Assembly (NCBI RefSeq): GCF_013372125.1
Contig: NZ_CP053826.1
Coordinates: forward strand, 1,550,001-1,614,000
DNA length: 64,000 nt
Direction of reading: 5' to 3'
From: Campylobacter curvus
GTDB taxonomy: Bacteria > Campylobacterota > Campylobacteria > Campylobacterales > Campylobacteraceae
Shown: one piece after another, positions 2,188 through 21,380 of the stretch
How positions within the stretch are numbered: the first letter of the stretch is position 1
Layout of the letters: the number at the start of each line of letters is the position of its first letter
The notes under the pieces: model-generated
Databases searched by the model: none
What the model saw: only the letters and a program-made list of their open reading frames with translations
Told to the model about the DNA's origin: nothing
Translations under genes and position numbers: made by a program

Positions 2188-4827
2188 TTACTTCAACTCA
2201 CCCCAGTTTTTCGCTACGTTTAGCGACGTTTTTAGCGGCACGTTTAGCTTATAAATTTCTTGCATTATCTTTTGCGCGCTCTCGCCAAACTCCGCCGCAT
2301 GCTCGTCTGCGACTTCAAAGATCAGCTCGTCGTGGATTTGCAGCAGCATTTTTGCCCTCACGCTGCAAAGCGGGCGGATCTTTACCATCGCTAGCTTTAT
2401 GATGTCGGCCGCCGAGCCTTGAAATATCGTATTTACCGCCTCGCGCTCATACATCGCAGTCTGCATTGGCGTTGCGTTTGTGAAGTCAAAAAATCGCTTC
2501 CTACCAAGCAAAGTCCGCACGAAGCCCTCATTTTTCGCCGCCGTTTTGATACCCTCCAAAAAGCCCTTTATCGTAGGAAATGCCTTAAAATAGCGCTCTA
2601 TATACTCCTTCGCCTCGGCGCGCGAGATATTTACCTGCCCTGCTAGCTTGCTCGAACCCATACCGTAAATCAGACCAAAATTTATGCTCTTTGCTACGGC
2701 GCGGTTTTGCCCATCTGCGCTACCAAATATGCTTATCGCTGTGCGCGCGTGGATATCCTCGTCGTTTTCAAACGCCTTTAAAAGCGCCTCGTCGCGACTA
2801 AAATGCGCGAGCAGTCTAAGCTCGATCTGGCTGTAATCAAGCCCGACGAAGCTAAATCCCTCCTTCGCCTCAAAGGTCTCGCGTACGTCTTTTGCTAGCG
2901 TGCCACGAGCGGGGATATTTTGCAAATTTGGATTTTTGCTAGCTAGCCTGCCCGTGCTCGTTCCGGTCTGGATAAAATTCGTATATATCCTGCTATTTTC
3001 ATCTTTATTTGCTAAATTTAACAGCGGTTCGCAGTATGTGCTTTGCAGTTTGTAAAGCTCGCGGTATTCGAGTAGCTTTGAGATCACGGGGTGTGCGTCT
3101 ATGAGCTCAGCGAGCACCGCCTCATCGGTGCTGTAACCGGTTTTGGTCTTTTTTTTCACTGGCAGTTTCAAGTGCTCAAATAGCACAGCGCCAAGCTGCT
3201 TAACGGAGTTTATATTAAAATTTTCGCCCGTAAGCTCATAAATTTCGCTCGTTAAAATTTTGATTTTTGCGTCGTTTTGCAGGATCAAATTTTGCATTTT
3301 TTTCTTATTTATCGCGATGCCCTCGTTCTCCATATCAAAAAGCGTGAGGATAAAAGGAAACTCGTGTGCGTTTGCAAGCTCGATGAGCGCGGGGTCGAGC
3401 AAATTTAAAAAGCTTTTGTAAAATTTTAGTGTTATCCACGCGTCCTCAGCGGCGTATTTGGCGGCGTTTTCTAACGGCACGGACGCAAAGGTCTCACCAC
3501 GTCTCACCACGTCTTCAAATTTGATCGTATCGTAGTTATACAGCCGCTTAGCCAGCGCGTCCATACCCACAGCCTGCGACGGGTCGGCAAGCCACGCCAG
3601 CACCATCGTATCTTTAAAATTTACTGGCGGTTCGAGCCCTAAATTTCGCTTTACGACCTTGAAATCATATTTTAAATTTTGCCCGACGACGCAGCCTTTG
3701 TAAATTTGCCCCACTGCCCACGTAGCAAAGTCCGTGCCTACCTGCTTTGGCGCGCCAAGATAGCTATGAGCGACCGGCACGTAGTAGGCGTCCTCGTCGT
3801 TAAAACAAAAGCTAAACCCCACAAGCCTTGCGCTTTGCGTGTCGATGTCCGTAGTCTCGGTGTCAAAGGCGACGATGGTCTCCTCGGTGATGTTTGCTAG
3901 CAGGCTTTCGATCGCGCTCTCGTCAGTGAGTAAATTTGCATTGAAACCTAGCTTAAATTCGGCGTTTTCATCGCTGTTTTGAAGCGATTTTAGCACGCGG
4001 CTTAGATCAAATTCGCGCAGCATATCAGCGACTTTTAAAAGAGGATTTTGCTGCGGAAAGGGCGCGTGGGCAAAATCCACCATATCAGGCGCATCGTCAA
4101 AAAGCGTGGTGAGTCGCTTGCTCAAAAACGCGCTCTCGCGCCCGGCAGCGAGCATTTCGCGCGTGCGTTCGTTTCTAACGAGGGCTAAATTTTCATATAT
4201 CGCCTCTAAGCTGCCAAACTCGGCGAGCAGCTTTTTTGCCCCGACCGCGCCGATGCCTTTGACGCCTGGGATATTGTCCGAGCTATCGCCCGCGATCGCG
4301 AGAAAATCGCGAATTTGCTCTGGGCGGACGCCATATTTTTCCACGCAGCTTGCCGTGTCGTGGTCGATCTTGCTAAGCGGGCTATAAATGCTGACCTTGC
4401 CATCCTCGATGAGCTGATAAAGGTCCTTATCGTGCGTAACGACGCGCACGAACACATCCTGCGACTTAGCAAGCCTCACTGCCGTGGCGATGATGTCATC
4501 AGCCTCGTAGCCCTCGCGCGAGATAGCGCAAAGCCCCATTTTCTCGATCATCTCTATACAAACGGGAAGCTGTTCTTTTAGCGCGGCGGGGGCTTCGCTG
4601 CGGTTTGCTTTATAATCGCCTGCGATCTTGTGACGCAGCGTCTCGCCTTTGCCCTCAAGCGCAAAAATGATGTAGTCGCTTGGGAATTCGTTCTTTAAAT
4701 TTAAGATAAAATTTGCAAAGCCGCTTATCATCCCGCTTGGCCTCCCGTCGCGGTTTTTGAGGTTTGGCATGGCGTAGTAAAGCCTGAAAAAGAAGCCAAA
4801 AGTATCGATTATCGTGAGTGTTTTCAT
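2188..4827 (-). CDS. polA: DNA polymerase I
   Basis: An 879-residue three-domain polymerase for Okazaki fragment maturation and repair synthesis. Residues 1 to ~285 are the 5'-3' (FEN-type) nuclease with YEADD, the acidic cluster GDSSDN and a GVKGIG helix-hairpin-helix. Residues ~300-490 are the 3'-5' proofreading domain, and it looks active: FDTET, GQNLKYDFK and YAAED keep the metal-binding acids and the Tyr. The palm and fingers carry motif A (GLDYSQIELR), motif B (RAVAKSINFGLIYG) and motif C (IHDELIFEV). The ATG is preceded by AAAGGAAAAACG. The gene lies directly downstream of a decayed reading frame and is probably co-transcribed with it. Confidence 0.97.
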   Translation of the reverse strand: MKTLTIIDTFGFFFRLYYAMPNLKNRDGRPSGMISGFANFILNLKNEFPSDYIIFALEGKGETLRHKIAGDYKANRSEAPAALKEQLPVCIEMIEKMGLCAISREGYEADDIIATAVRLAKSQDVFVRVVTHDKDLYQLIEDGKVSIYSPLSKIDHDTASCVEKYGVRPEQIRDFLAIAGDSSDNIPGVKGIGAVGAKKLLAEFGSLEAIYENLALVRNERTREMLAAGRESAFLSKRLTTLFDDAPDMVDFAHAPFPQQNPLLKVADMLREFDLSRVLKSLQNSDENAEFKLGFNANLLTDESAIESLLANITEETIVAFDTETTDIDTQSARLVGFSFCFNDEDAYYVPVAHSYLGAPKQVGTDFATWAVGQIYKGCVVGQNLKYDFKVVKRNLGLEPPVNFKDTMVLAWLADPSQAVGMDALAKRLYNYDTIKFEDVVRRGETFASVPLENAAKYAAEDAWITLKFYKSFLNLLDPALIELANAHEFPFILTLFDMENEGIAINKKKMQNLILQNDAKIKILTSEIYELTGENFNINSVKQLGAVLFEHLKLPVKKKTKTGYSTDEAVLAELIDAHPVISKLLEYRELYKLQSTYCEPLLNLANKDENSRIYTNFIQTGTSTGRLASKNPNLQNIPARGTLAKDVRETFEAKEGFSFVGLDYSQIELRLLAHFSRDEALLKAFENDEDIHARTAISIFGSADGQNRAVAKSINFGLIYGMGSSKLAGQVNISRAEAKEYIERYFKAFPTIKGFLEGIKTAAKNEGFVRTLLGRKRFFDFTNATPMQTAMYEREAVNTIFQGSAADIIKLAMVKIRPLCSVRAKMLLQIHDELIFEVADEHAAEFGESAQKIMQEIYKLNVPLKTSLNVAKNWGELK

Positions 4828-16966: not shown

Positions 16967-17581
16967 ATGAATGAAAATTTGATGCTTTATTTGATAGCTT
17001 ATTTGCTCGGCGGAGTGCCGTTCGGACTGATATTTGGCAAAATTTTCGCCAAAGTGGATATAACTACCGAGGGTAGCGGCAGTATCGGTGCGACAAACGT
17101 TTTACGCGTATTAAAGCAGCACGATCCAAAACTCGCCAAAAAAATAGCCGTCTTGACTGTCGTTTTTGACGTCCTAAAAGGCGTAGCGCCTATCTTGATC
17201 GCTCGCGCCTTCGATGTTAGCCAAAGCGTGCTTTGGGGTATGGCGGTGCTTAGCGTAGTCGGACACTGCTTCTCGCCATTTTTGAAATTTGAAGGAGGTA
17301 AAGGTGTAGCAACGGGTGCTGGCGTGATAGCCTGCTTTTTGCCTATCGAGATCGCGATAGCCCTTCTGGCGTGGTTTTTGATCGGTAAAATTTTAAAGAT
17401 AAGCTCCCTTGCCTCGCTTGGTGCGCTTGCGGCGCTCATCATCGCTAGCTTCATCTTGCATCCTGATATGAACGGCATCCATAGCCATGCACCGCTTTTG
17501 ATCATCGCATTTTTGGTAGTTTATAAACACCTACCAAATATCAAGCGCCTATTAAGCGGGACGGAACAAAAAGTGATATGA
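16967..17581 (+). CDS. plsY: Acyl-phosphate:glycerol-3-phosphate acyltransferase PlsY
   Basis: A 204-residue integral membrane enzyme that takes acyl-phosphate made by PlsX and acylates glycerol-3-phosphate to lysophosphatidate. Family loops are clear: GGVPFGLIFGK near the N-terminus, GSGSIGATNVLRV, and the glycine-rich FEGGKGVATGAGV. Five hydrophobic segments fit the known topology. The start has AAAGG upstream. Its stop overlaps the folB start by 4 bases (ATGA), so the pair is translationally coupled. Confidence 0.95.
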   Translation: MNENLMLYLIAYLLGGVPFGLIFGKIFAKVDITTEGSGSIGATNVLRVLKQHDPKLAKKIAVLTVVFDVLKGVAPILIARAFDVSQSVLWGMAVLSVVGHCFSPFLKFEGGKGVATGAGVIACFLPIEIAIALLAWFLIGKILKISSLASLGALAALIIASFILHPDMNGIHSHAPLLIIAFLVVYKHLPNIKRLLSGTEQKVI

Positions 17582-17904
17582 GCCAAAAAATCACGACGCT
17601 CATCAAAGATCATGAGTTTGAAACGATCATCGGGATGCTTGACTTTGAGCGCATTACTCCTCAAAAAGTGCGTATGAACGCCAGTTTTTGCAGTAGCGGA
17701 TTCATCGACTATGTCAGCGTGATAGAATTTATAGAAAAATTTTACAACGAGCGAAAATTTAAAAGTGTCGAAGAGTCGCTTGAAGCTACTTCAAAGGCTT
17801 TAAAAGAAAATTTTAAGGATCTGATTTCCTTAAATTTAGAAATTTTAAAAATCGAAATCCTGAAAAATGCGACGGTCGGTGCGAAAATAGAATCCGTTTA
17901 TTAA
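17578..17904 (+). CDS. folB: Dihydroneopterin aldolase (FolB family)
   Basis: A 108-residue T-fold protein for folate synthesis (dihydroneopterin to 6-hydroxymethyl-dihydropterin plus glycolaldehyde). It keeps the short strand IIGMLDFERITPQKVRMN, the YVSVIEFIEKF helix and the EILK strand. It is somewhat short and divergent, so the call leans on the position between plsY and cosR, which matches a folB gene beside cosR in C. jejuni as I recall. It overlaps plsY by 4 bases. Confidence 0.75.
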   Translation: MSQKITTLIKDHEFETIIGMLDFERITPQKVRMNASFCSSGFIDYVSVIEFIEKFYNERKFKSVEESLEATSKALKENFKDLISLNLEILKIEILKNATVGAKIESVY

Positions 17905-17944
17905 AAATTTATTAAAGTATCTTGAAGTCCTGCTTAATTTATGA

Positions 17945-17950
17945 TATAAT
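17945..17950 (+). promoter_or_regulatory. -10 box of the cosR-kinase operon
   Basis: TATAAT in the context TTTATGATATAATCCCC lies 31 bases before the cosR ATG; AAGGAAAAAAA is the ribosome binding site. Confidence 0.6.
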
Positions 17951-17980: not shown

Positions 17981-18652
17981 ATGCGTATCTTGATAGTAGA
18001 AGACGAAGTGACGCTAAACAAGACGATTGCAGAGGGGCTGCAAGAATTCGGCTACCAGACGGATAGCTCGGAGAATTTCAAGGATGCCGAATACTACATC
18101 GGCATAAGAAATTACGACCTGGTTTTGACAGACTGGATGCTCCCAGACGGTGACGGAGTCGATCTCATAAACGTCATAAAACATAAATCTCCACGCACAT
18201 CAGTAGTCGTGATCTCTGCAAAAGACGACAAAGACAGCGAGATAAAAGCGCTTCGCGCCGGAGCGGATGACTACATTAGAAAACCGTTTGACTTTGATGT
18301 TTTGGTAGCGCGCCTAGAGGCCAGACTAAGATTTGGCGGCACCAACATCATAAAAATCGACGATCTTATAATCAATCCTGACGAGGAAAAGATCACATAT
18401 CTTGGCCGTGACATCGAGCTAAAAGGCAAGCCGTTCGAGGTCTTGACACACCTTGCTCGCCACTCCGATCAGATCGTCTCTAAAGAGCAACTCCTTGACG
18501 CCATCTGGGAAGAGCCTGAGCTAGTCACTCCAAACGTGATCGAAGTAGCGATCAATCAAATCCGCCAAAAAATGGACAAACCGCTAAATATCTCAACTAT
18601 CGAAACAGTAAGAAGACGCGGATATAGATTTTGCTTTCCCAAAAAAGCTTAA
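17981..18652 (+). CDS. cosR: OmpR-family response regulator, CosR/HsrA orthologue with phosphoacceptor Asp
   Basis: A 223-residue regulator: receiver domain (1-~115) then winged-helix DNA-binding domain (~125-220). The second half (for example KPFEVLTHLARHSDQIVSK and ETVRRRGYRF) is nearly what I remember of C. jejuni CosR, the oxidative-stress regulator, and the flanking folB also agrees. In C. jejuni and H. pylori these are orphan, atypical regulators; C. jejuni CosR has Asn where Asp would be phosphorylated. Here the motif reads LVLTDWMLPDGDG with Asp at residue 51, an acidic pocket (E7, D8, E9) and Lys in RKPFD, so the receiver looks able to accept phosphate. The histidine kinase gene overlaps its 3' end by 22 bases. 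Confidence 0.9.
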   Translation: MRILIVEDEVTLNKTIAEGLQEFGYQTDSSENFKDAEYYIGIRNYDLVLTDWMLPDGDGVDLINVIKHKSPRTSVVVISAKDDKDSEIKALRAGADDYIRKPFDFDVLVARLEARLRFGGTNIIKIDDLIINPDEEKITYLGRDIELKGKPFEVLTHLARHSDQIVSKEQLLDAIWEEPELVTPNVIEVAINQIRQKMDKPLNISTIETVRRRGYRFCFPKKA

Positions 18653-19923
18653 GAAATAGATTTATACTGCAATTAGCCTCCGCATCGATGATGCTGATTG
18701 CAGTTATTTCAGTAATGTTATATTACTACATCAGGGTCACCGTCTTTGAGACGGTCATCCAAGAGCTCAGCCACGAAGCTAACCAAATAATAACCAATCC
18801 TCAAAAATACAATCCTTTAAATTTGCAAAATTTCATCATACAAGAGCCAAATCAAACCGAAACCTTAGTGCAAATAAAGCAAGGTCAGCTTACTCAGAAA
18901 AAGCCCTATTTCTCGCTATTTCAAAATGGAGAGCAAAGCTTTACTACGCTAGCGCATCCATATATCGATGATGATTCTTATATGATACTTAAAAAAGAGA
19001 CGACATTGCAAAGCAAGATCGTCGAGCAAATTTTCGTAGACATCATCATCGTAAATGCCACGGCGATACTGCTCGTGCTTTTTTACGCACTATTTTTATC
19101 AAGGATGCTTCTGCTACCTATAAGAACGCTGTCTGCGAAGCTGACAAAGCTTGACGAGAAATTTTTAAAAGAGATAGATATCAAAAGCCTGCCTGATGAA
19201 TTTTACCCGCTTGGCAACAGCATAAATAAGCTCATATTGCGTATCAAAACGTTCGTAGAGTATCAAAAAGAGCTTTTTGTCGGCGTTGCGCACGAGTTGA
19301 AAACGCCGCTTGCCGTCATGAAGACCAAAAACGAAGTGACCCTCATAAAAACAAGAGAGAGCGAAAAATATATCGAAGCGCTAAGATCGAACAACGAAGC
19401 GATAAACAATATGAACAGCATGATAAGCTCGGTGCTAGAGATCGGACGCCAGGAGGGAGCGCAGTTTGAAGAGCCCGTAAATACAGACATCATAGGCTTT
19501 TTAAACAAACTTGGCAACAACTTTCAAATTTTGGCTCGCGCAGAAGAAAAGAACATCATCATGTCCCTGCAGCCTGAAATTTTAAACATGAAGATCCAAA
19601 CCACGCTACTCACTCACGTCATACAAAATTTCGTCCAAAACGCTATAAAATTTTCACCCAAGGACTCAAATATCACTATCCTTTCAAGGACCGAAAAAAA
19701 CAGCTTCATCATCGAGGTTATCGACGAAGGTATCGGTATCGACGAGAGTAAGGACCTTTTTGCGCCGTTTAAAAGATTTGGCGATAAAGGCGGAGCCGGG
19801 CTTGGGCTATTTCTAGCAAAGGGAGCGGCGCAAGCTCTTGGCGGTAGCGTCGCTATCAAAAACCGCAAGGACGGCAAAAGCGGCGCGGTCTCTACCCTCA
19901 CACTACCTATAAAAATCAATTAG
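18631..19923 (+). CDS. Membrane sensor histidine kinase, probable CosR partner
   Basis: A 430-residue kinase. Basic N-terminus, a membrane helix (~12-33), a periplasmic sensor of ~110 residues without recognised fold, a second helix (~133-155) and a HAMP-like linker. HisKA has the phosphorylatable His in FVGVAHELKTPLAV. The HATPase_c has N-box QNFVQNAIKFSP, G1 DEGIGID and G2 GGAGLGLFLAKG. All catalytic motifs are intact. The start is a TTG at 18631 inside the last codons of cosR; the next in-frame ATG lies within the first membrane helix. Overlap with cosR makes it the obvious kinase for that regulator. C. jejuni, as I recall, has no kinase gene here. Confidence 0.88.
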   Translation: MLSQKSLRNRFILQLASASMMLIAVISVMLYYYIRVTVFETVIQELSHEANQIITNPQKYNPLNLQNFIIQEPNQTETLVQIKQGQLTQKKPYFSLFQNGEQSFTTLAHPYIDDDSYMILKKETTLQSKIVEQIFVDIIIVNATAILLVLFYALFLSRMLLLPIRTLSAKLTKLDEKFLKEIDIKSLPDEFYPLGNSINKLILRIKTFVEYQKELFVGVAHELKTPLAVMKTKNEVTLIKTRESEKYIEALRSNNEAINNMNSMISSVLEIGRQEGAQFEEPVNTDIIGFLNKLGNNFQILARAEEKNIIMSLQPEILNMKIQTTLLTHVIQNFVQNAIKFSPKDSNITILSRTEKNSFIIEVIDEGIGIDESKDLFAPFKRFGDKGGAGLGLFLAKGAAQALGGSVAIKNRKDGKSGAVSTLTLPIKIN

Positions 19924-19931
19924 GAAATTTC

Positions 19932-21380
19932 ATGGCAAAACGCACCGCTGTAATAGATCTAGGCTCAAATTCCATGCGAATGGCGATATTTGAGCGCACT
20001 TCTCGCTGGGCGTTTTTCATACTGGGCGAATACAAAATGCGCGTGCGCCTAGGCGAAGGTGGCTATGATAGTAGCAACGAAATATCCGAAAAATCGATGC
20101 AAAAAGCGTATGAAGCGCTAGCGGAATTTAAAAATATCTCAAAAAGCTACAAATGCACCAAAATTTTATGCGTCGGCACCTCAGCACTTAGAGATGCGCC
20201 AAATTCCGCTCAGTTCATCTCGATGATACGTAAAAAACTGGGCATCGGCATAAGGGTCATCGACGGCAAAGCCGAGGCCACTTACGGAGCGATCGCAGCC
20301 AAAAATCTGCTATGTCCCCTAGATGAGGGCGTCACGATAGATATCGGCGGCGGCTCGACCGAGCTAGCCCGCATAAGCGGCGGCAAAATCGTCGATACCA
20401 TATCGCTCGACGTGGGCACGGTGCGTGTAAAGGAGCTATTTTTTGACAGTAAAAATACCGCCAAACTGCCAAACTTCCTGGCGCAAATCACGGCAAAAAT
20501 ACCTGCAAATTTCAAATGCCAAAATTTGATAGCCATCGGCGGAAGCCTAAGGGCCATCTCAGGCGCCATAATGAGCGGCTCAGGCTATCCGTTAGCGACG
20601 CTTCACGGCTTTTGCTATAAGCTTAGCGAGCAAAAAAATTTCATCCAAAGCATCGCCGACTCGAGCGTTTTGGAGCTCAATAAATTCCCGATCAAAAAGG
20701 ACAGATACGATACGATACGCGAAGGGGCGCATATATTTTTAGCGATTAGCGGCGCACTTGAGGCCAAAAACATCTACACGAGCGGCGTTGGTGTGAGGGA
20801 GGGTGTATTTTTGAGCGACTTCTTGCGCCCTAGCATGAAATTCCCGCAAAATTTTAACCCGAGCGTAAAAAGCCTGCAAGATCGCTTTATGCTCACGGAC
20901 AACAAAGCCGTCACAAGATATGCAAAAGAGATATTTTTGTCCCTAAGCAAGATCCACAAGCTAAAAGATGAGCATCTAAACGCATTGCTAGTGGCCTCAA
21001 AGCTTTACAATGTCGGGCAAGACATAGGATTTTACGGGGATCACAAAAACTCGGCATACATCATCCTAAATGGCTTAAATTTCGGATTTTCACACGAGCA
21101 AAAGGCGCTGATCGCAGCGATAATCGGCACTAACGGCAAAAAGATCATTTATGAATTCGAGCGATATAAAAATTTACTCCCAAAACCAGAATGCATAAGA
21201 TGGTTAAGCTTTATGCTCTCGCTCGCAAAAGCGCTTAATATAAACTGCGCGGCGGCTAAGCTCGGGTTTGAATTTACCGGCCATACGCTTAAAATTTATG
21301 GAGCTAAAAATCTAGCGATGGCTAAAGACGAGATAAAAAAGATAGCAAAGCCTGAAATTTTCGCTATTTCGTTTGTTTAA
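19932..21380 (+). CDS. Ppx/GppA family phosphatase
   Basis: A 482-residue ASKHA-fold enzyme acting on polyphosphate and/or pppGpp. It has VIDLGSNSMRMAIF at the N-terminus (phosphate loop 1), GTSALRDA, and TIDIGGGSTELARI (loop 2), plus a C-terminal HD-like helical region (~310-480). GppA and Ppx activities cannot be separated from sequence. It starts 8 bases after the kinase stop with AGGA upstream, so cosR-kinase-ppx may be one transcript. Polyphosphate and ppGpp both affect stress survival in Campylobacter, which suits co-expression with CosR. Confidence 0.9.
   Translation: MAKRTAVIDLGSNSMRMAIFERTSRWAFFILGEYKMRVRLGEGGYDSSNEISEKSMQKAYEALAEFKNISKSYKCTKILCVGTSALRDAPNSAQFISMIRKKLGIGIRVIDGKAEATYGAIAAKNLLCPLDEGVTIDIGGGSTELARISGGKIVDTISLDVGTVRVKELFFDSKNTAKLPNFLAQITAKIPANFKCQNLIAIGGSLRAISGAIMSGSGYPLATLHGFCYKLSEQKNFIQSIADSSVLELNKFPIKKDRYDTIREGAHIFLAISGALEAKNIYTSGVGVREGVFLSDFLRPSMKFPQNFNPSVKSLQDRFMLTDNKAVTRYAKEIFLSLSKIHKLKDEHLNALLVASKLYNVGQDIGFYGDHKNSAYIILNGLNFGFSHEQKALIAAIIGTNGKKIIYEFERYKNLLPKPECIRWLSFMLSLAKALNINCAAAKLGFEFTGHTLKIYGAKNLAMAKDEIKKIAKPEIFAISFV

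What the first reader, a model, noticed from the sequence alone, without database searches (positions are those of the whole stretch)
17981..19923. CosR orthologue with a phosphorylatable Asp51 and an overlapping histidine kinase gene
Seen: receiver motif LVLTDWMLPDGDG with Asp at 51, intact acidic pocket and Lys, and a full kinase gene (HELKTP, N/G1/G2 boxes) starting inside the last 22 bases of cosR. Known: in C. jejuni, CosR is an orphan, atypical regulator with Asn at that position, and H. pylori HsrA is likewise atypical. Inference: this lineage keeps the ancestral two-component form, and the kinase was lost as the receiver lost its Asp in C. jejuni. That would make CosR signal-responsive here.
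Basis: partly seen in the sequence, partly recalled or inferred. Interest (0 to 1): 0.75.

Follow-up and report, generated by a model that had tools for sequence, protein, structure and literature searches.

The report
Known CosR-CosS two-component pair
This is the CosR regulator with its partner sensor kinase CosS, a pair published in 2014; a wider genome census suggests that where the pair broke up, the kinase went first and the regulator's phosphorylation site later.

Summary
In detail: cosR (17981-18652) has Asp51 and an intact phosphorylation pocket, and a histidine kinase gene (18631-19923, TTG start) overlaps its last 22 bases. It is not new: Hwang et al. 2014 (PMC3938529) named the kinase CosS, showed it beside cosR in C. 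curvus and others, contrasted Asp51 with the Asn/Ser of C. jejuni, C. lari and C. coli, and showed phosphotransfer in C. fetus. Of 276 Campylobacterota genomes read, 151 have Asp51 and CosS, 99 neither, 26 Asp51 without CosS, 0 CosS without Asp51. The paired form looks ancestral, at least outside family f4. Joint loss of kinase and Asp is not what the data suggest: four groups (g7 of Campylobacteraceae, two Helicobacteraceae groups including H. cinaedi, and family f4) keep Asp51 with no CosS found, and the Asp51-less helicobacters do not form one clade without the H. cinaedi group (AU p 0.0005). Kinase first, receiver surface next, Asp51 last fits best, but the sign test over independent pairs is not significant (p 0.125-0.25), and C. 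jejuni's own lineage does not resolve the order. The core is known; the order of loss and the kinase-less Asp51 groups are modest additions.

The parts
17981..18652 (+). cosR, OmpR/PhoB-type response regulator, 223 aa
   Evidence: ORF and translation; Pfam PF00072 89.7 bits and PF00486 73.5 bits; best solved chain 8uvx_B, E 2e-127, 'DNA-binding response regulator' (that this is C. jejuni CosR is recalled)
18131..18133 (+). codon of the phospho-acceptor Asp51 (GAC)
   Evidence: sequence; aligned with E7, D8, S79, K101 over 280 loci
18631..19923 (+). cosS, sensor histidine kinase, 430 aa from a TTG start
   Evidence: ORF; HisKA 33.1 and HATPase_c 66.2 bits over cut-off, HAMP 21.0 under its cut-off of 25; 608.5 bits to the CosS profile A1, of whose 25 rows it is one
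18631..18652 (+). 22-nt overlap of cosS with the 3' end of cosR
   Evidence: sequence; same first-start position in 110 of 149 loci
19291..19293 (+). codon of the presumed phospho-donor His221 in HELKTP
   Evidence: sequence; invariant in 25 aligned CosS (whose first row begins one codon earlier and numbers it 222)
17922..17950 (+). sigma-70-like promoter TTGAAG-17-TATAAT upstream of cosR
   Evidence: read by eye; no promoter scan was run
17578..17904 (+). upstream neighbour, folB-like (name recalled)
   Evidence: ORF; ORFs of similar size and sequence stand before cosR in many loci printed
19932..21380 (+). downstream neighbour, ppx/gppA-like (name recalled)
   Evidence: ORF; ORFs with a similar start lie downstream of cosR in many loci printed

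Best explanation
An ordinary, ancestral two-component system, CosS-CosR. CosS is a membrane kinase (by eye, two hydrophobic stretches with about 100 residues between them; no predictor was run) that autophosphorylates on His221 and passes the phosphate to Asp51 of CosR, which then alters its grip on promoters. The two genes are probably co-transcribed and translationally coupled through the overlap. Across Campylobacterota the kinase has been lost several times; in most such lineages the receiver's surface and then Asp51 decayed while the DNA-binding domain stayed nearly unchanged, giving the phosphorylation-independent CosR of C. jejuni and HsrA of H. pylori. Shown here: gene anatomy, conservation, distribution, no CosS found elsewhere in the kinase-less genomes searched. 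Shown by others in C. fetus: phosphotransfer. Inferred: that the same happens in this species, the signal, and the order of loss.
For: Anatomy. Census: places; loci; counts: Asp51+CosS 151, neither 99, Asp51 only 26, CosS only 0, of 276 genomes (of 397 in which CosR was found). CosS sought genome-wide with profile A1: none in the 99 nor in the 26; best other kinase 148.4 bits, against 380.9-615.1 bits for CosS. The CosS-bearing genomes have the full pocket EDDSK (in family f5 their CosS-paired or first copy). Named set: 45 both, 23 neither, 11 Asp51 only, 0 CosS only, of 79 loci (39 of the 80 coincide with the census). Phosphotransfer and C. curvus synteny: PMC3938529.
Against: No phosphotransfer is shown for this species. 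The association is phylogenetically clustered: on the rpoB tree only 5-7 independent pairs exist, none opposite, sign test p 0.125-0.25, not significant. The order of loss cannot be resolved in the C. jejuni lineage, whose nearest sampled relative (g6) has both. A regain of Asp51 in the H. cinaedi group instead of parallel losses is not excluded. cosS knock-out in C. fetus had little effect (PMC3938529).
Confidence: 0.92

Rival explanations
1. Asp and kinase were lost together, or Asp first: once Asp51 mutates, the kinase is useless and is deleted.
For: 99 of 276 genomes lack both, and the C. jejuni lineage (g2) shows both lost with no intermediate. The sign test does not exclude chance.
Against: 26 genomes in four groups lack CosS but keep Asp51; none of 276 has CosS without Asp51. 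The H. cinaedi group (g34) lies inside a clade that otherwise lacks both; holding the ten Asp51-less rows together is rejected (AU p 0.0005; the group was chosen after the tree was seen).
Confidence: 0.12
2. CosS is a kinase for another regulator and its place beside cosR is an accident of synteny.
For: cosS knock-out in C. fetus had little phenotype, and C. fetus CosR bound C. jejuni CosR targets weakly (PMC3938529).
Against: Co-occurrence with Asp51, recurring overlap, and phosphotransfer to C. fetus CosR in vitro (PMC3938529).
Confidence: 0.03

Closest known systems
CosR-CosS of Campylobacter fetus (Hwang et al. 2014, PMC3938529)
   Same: gene order cosR-cosS, Asp51, His kinase motifs; the paper's Fig. 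1B legend lists C. curvus 525.92 and C. concisus with the same arrangement
   Different: no difference in kind found; phosphotransfer not shown for this species
CosR of C. jejuni (Cj0355c)
   Same: orthologue; in 37 genomes of its genus code g2 99.9% of the 75 most conserved DNA-binding columns are kept
   Different: Asn or Ser at 51 in 38 of 38 g2 genomes read and no CosS found in them; receiver keeps 78.5% of the 54 conserved columns
HsrA/HP1043 of Helicobacter pylori
   Same: orthologue, essential OmpR-type regulator (PMC9449129, passages)
   Different: deletion around residue 51 in 6 of 11 g19 loci, no CosS; that these six are the H. pylori type is my inference

Membership tests
CosR-CosS two-component system | OmpR-type regulator with receiver and winged-helix output domains | tested here: met
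CosR-CosS two-component system | Asp51 and intact phosphorylation pocket | tested here: met
   E7 D8 D51 S79 K101
CosR-CosS two-component system | histidine kinase with HisKA and HATPase_c directly downstream on the same strand | tested here: met
CosR-CosS two-component system | kinase orthologous to CosS of other genera, not just any kinase | tested here: met
   37-62% identity to 24 kinases that follow cosR in other genera; the best kinase in the 99 Asp51-less genomes reaches 141.6 bits to the profile, CosS 380.9 or more. C. fetus CosS itself was not fetched by name
CosR-CosS two-component system | phosphotransfer from CosS to CosR Asp51 | not testable with these tools
   phosphotransfer shown for the C. 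fetus pair in PMC3938529
atypical orphan CosR/HsrA | no Asp at position 51 and no partner kinase | tested here: not met

The most novel reading that the evidence does not exclude
In lineages that lost CosS but keep a complete phosphorylation pocket (17 species: g7, g33 and the H. cinaedi group g34), CosR is still phosphorylated by some other donor, or Asp51 has taken a second, phosphate-free role. The graded series (conserved receiver columns kept: CosS genera 98.5%, g7 99.4%, g33 94.4%, g34 80.6%, Asp51-less 52-80%) would be a natural record of how a two-component regulator turns into a phosphorylation-independent one: kinase first, docking surface next, Asp last.
Probability: 0.4. Interest if true: 0.5.

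Novelty: already known. Interest (0 to 1): 0.27.

Why it matters
CosR/HsrA is essential in C. jejuni and H. pylori and is discussed as a drug target (PMC9449129, passages), yet how it receives signals is unknown (PMC10936212, passages). The pair in this genome shows the kinase-driven state, but that was published in 2014. What the census adds is a usable evolutionary series: groups that lost the kinase while keeping the full phosphorylation pocket are the place to ask whether an essential regulator can be fed phosphate from elsewhere, or how it becomes independent of phosphate.

Tried and rejected
A displaced CosS in the Asp51 genomes that lack an adjacent kinase was sought genome-wide: found for G133 (3.5 kb downstream, after an opposite-strand ORF) and G348 (another contig), so these were recounted as CosS-bearing; also recounted were G145 (425-base gap) and G131 (frame opens 187 bases upstream), which the adjacency window (-100 to +300) had missed. 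Not found in g7 (3 of 3), g33 (3 of 3), g34 (11 of 11), f4 (9 of 9). The best kinases of G231 and G354 (g7) and of G223 (f4) have an ORF beside them that reads by eye as an OmpR-type regulator, so I rejected them as a hidden CosS; the best kinase of G319 (g7) was not looked at.

A decayed cosS was sought with 25 CosS proteins in up to 1.5 kb behind cosR in the kinase-less groups: one hit at E 0.013 (G371), taken as chance. g7 as an intermediate beneath the C. jejuni clade was rejected: on the rpoB tree g7 groups with f10 and g8, away from g2. A first rpoB tree had two rows in a wrong frame and was replaced.

Limits and dropped rows. CosR was found in 397 of 397 genomes; residue 51 and context were read in 276 of these. 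Of 280 CosR loci, four second copies in family f5 (G394, G117, G007, G348) were left out of the 276-genome count; they keep Asp51 but have altered pockets. G173, whose cosR is split over two frames, counts as Asp51-less by its first piece, and was left out. L444 (42 bases downstream only) was left out of the named set. One genome (G365) gave no rpoB match, so the tree has 59 of 60. Profile searches listed matches at E 1e-20 or better and, in large genomes, scored at most 25 candidates of the first look. No structure prediction was run.

Full report
What is there. The window lies in a single-contig genome of 1,974,918 bases. cosR is 17981-18652, 223 aa, Asp51 at 18131-18133. The ORF 18631-19923 overlaps it by 22 nt and encodes a 430-aa histidine kinase from a TTG start (Pfam).

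It is in print. PMC3938529 (abstract, Introduction and whole Results and Discussion read) named the kinase CosS, showed it downstream of cosR in C. fetus, C. concisus, C. curvus and C. hominis, reported cosS homologues in Wolinella, Arcobacter, Sulfurospirillum and H. pullorum, noted Asp51 in non-thermotolerant and Asn or Ser in thermotolerant species, and showed phosphotransfer from C. fetus CosS to C. fetus CosR but not to C. jejuni CosR. PMC10936212 and PMC8231278 (passages) repeat the distribution.

CosR was found in 397 of 397 Campylobacterota genomes. Residue 51 and context were read for 276 of these. Result: Asp51 with CosS 151; neither 99; Asp51 without CosS 26; CosS without Asp51 0. 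In 149 of the 151 the kinase follows cosR within 430 bases; in the other two it lies 3.5 kb away (G133) or on another contig (G348). The 99 are g2 (38 genomes; C. coli, C. bilis and records labelled C. jejuni), nine Helicobacteraceae genera (50), one genome of g9 (G034) and g52 of family f3 (10) (names by 100% cosR match). A profile search found no CosS in any of the 99 or the 26: best other kinase 148.4 bits, against 380.9 or more for CosS.

A second, named set (the best 80 of 436 relatives) gives 45 both, 23 neither, 11 Asp51 only, 0 CosS only, of 79. It is not independent: 39 of 80 have the same cosR as a census locus.

The exceptions. Asp51 without CosS: g7 of Campylobacteraceae (3 of 3, not named), g33 (3 of 3, among them Helicobacter sp. 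15-1451), g34 (11 of 11, among them H. cinaedi, H. marmotae, H. japonicus, H. magdeburgensis, H. labetoulli), and family f4 (9 of 9, not named). In g7, g33 and g34 the whole pocket EDDSK is intact; in f4 residue 8 is Lys or Arg in all nine, so that pocket is probably dead although Asp51 aligns. Whether g7 contradicts the statement of PMC3938529 that all validly described non-thermotolerant Campylobacter taxa have cosS I could not establish, as g7 has no name; the tree puts it with f10 (Sulfurospirillum) and g8.

Order of loss. On an rpoB tree of 59 genomes the fewest changes are 7 for CosS and 5 for Asp51. The H. cinaedi group g34 sits beside g30 inside a clade of 12 helicobacter rows that all lack CosS (support 100/99); a tree that holds the 10 Asp51-less rows together without g34 is rejected (p-AU 0.000456). 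If CosS was lost once at the base of that clade, Asp51 outlived it and was then lost several times; a regain in g34 is the alternative. The group was named after the tree was seen, which weakens the p-value. The sign test over independent pairs is not significant (5-7 pairs, none opposite, p 0.125-0.25). For C. jejuni's own lineage the order is open, since its sister g6 has both.

Receiver decay. Of 54 receiver columns conserved (95% or more) in 49 CosS-bearing genera, CosS genomes keep 98.5%, g7 99.4%, g33 94.4%, g34 80.6%, g2 78.5%, g52 75.9%, f4 56.2%, the other Asp51-less groups 52-80%; the 75 conserved DNA-binding columns stay at 90-100% in every group except f4 (82%) and the single G348 (88%). 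So the receiver of g34 has decayed about as far as that of the C. jejuni genus although its phosphorylation pocket is complete. This fits kinase loss, then surface drift, then Asp loss. The columns were chosen on CosS genomes, so those score high by construction.

What it does here. Most likely CosS phosphorylates CosR on Asp51 in response to an unknown signal. Because cosS could be knocked out in C. fetus while cosR apparently could not (PMC3938529), the signal probably tunes an otherwise essential regulator.

Is the added part new? Searches of the held library listed no paper whose title or abstract start deals with the order of loss or with CosS-less Asp51 helicobacters; I opened only the papers named here, and subscription journals are mostly not held. 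A 2025 review on pseudo-receivers (PMC12632262, passages) says such receivers seem to have evolved many times and that in GlnR and RamR the Asp serves dimer formation and not phosphorylation, a precedent for Asp51 kept without a kinase.

Noticed in passing
L218, L224, L230, L232 (G394, G117, G007, G348): Four family f5 genomes carry a second, kinase-less CosR copy that keeps Asp51 but differs at residues of the acidic pocket and the Lys.
   Followed up: partly
L169 (G173), around 3555-4270: cosR of one g2 genome lies in two overlapping frames; for an essential gene an assembly error is likely.
   Followed up: no
L398, 1813-2475: Helicobacter labacensis CosR shows Asp at 51 but Arg at 8 and Ala at 79, where its gastric relatives have Gly or Ser at 51; possibly a chance return to Asp.
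   Followed up: no
L394, 4001-4663: A cave MAG labelled Helicobacter cetorum has Asp51 and no CosS behind cosR, and its cosR is nearest to family f13; the label looks wrong.
   Followed up: partly
L280, after 4269: In G133 (f7) a roughly 3 kb ORF on the opposite strand stands between cosR and cosS.
   Followed up: partly
window 18631-18652: The first residues of CosS are encoded by the same bases as the end of CosR, so the recurring N-terminal motif and TTG start of CosS are partly dictated by CosR.
   Followed up: partly
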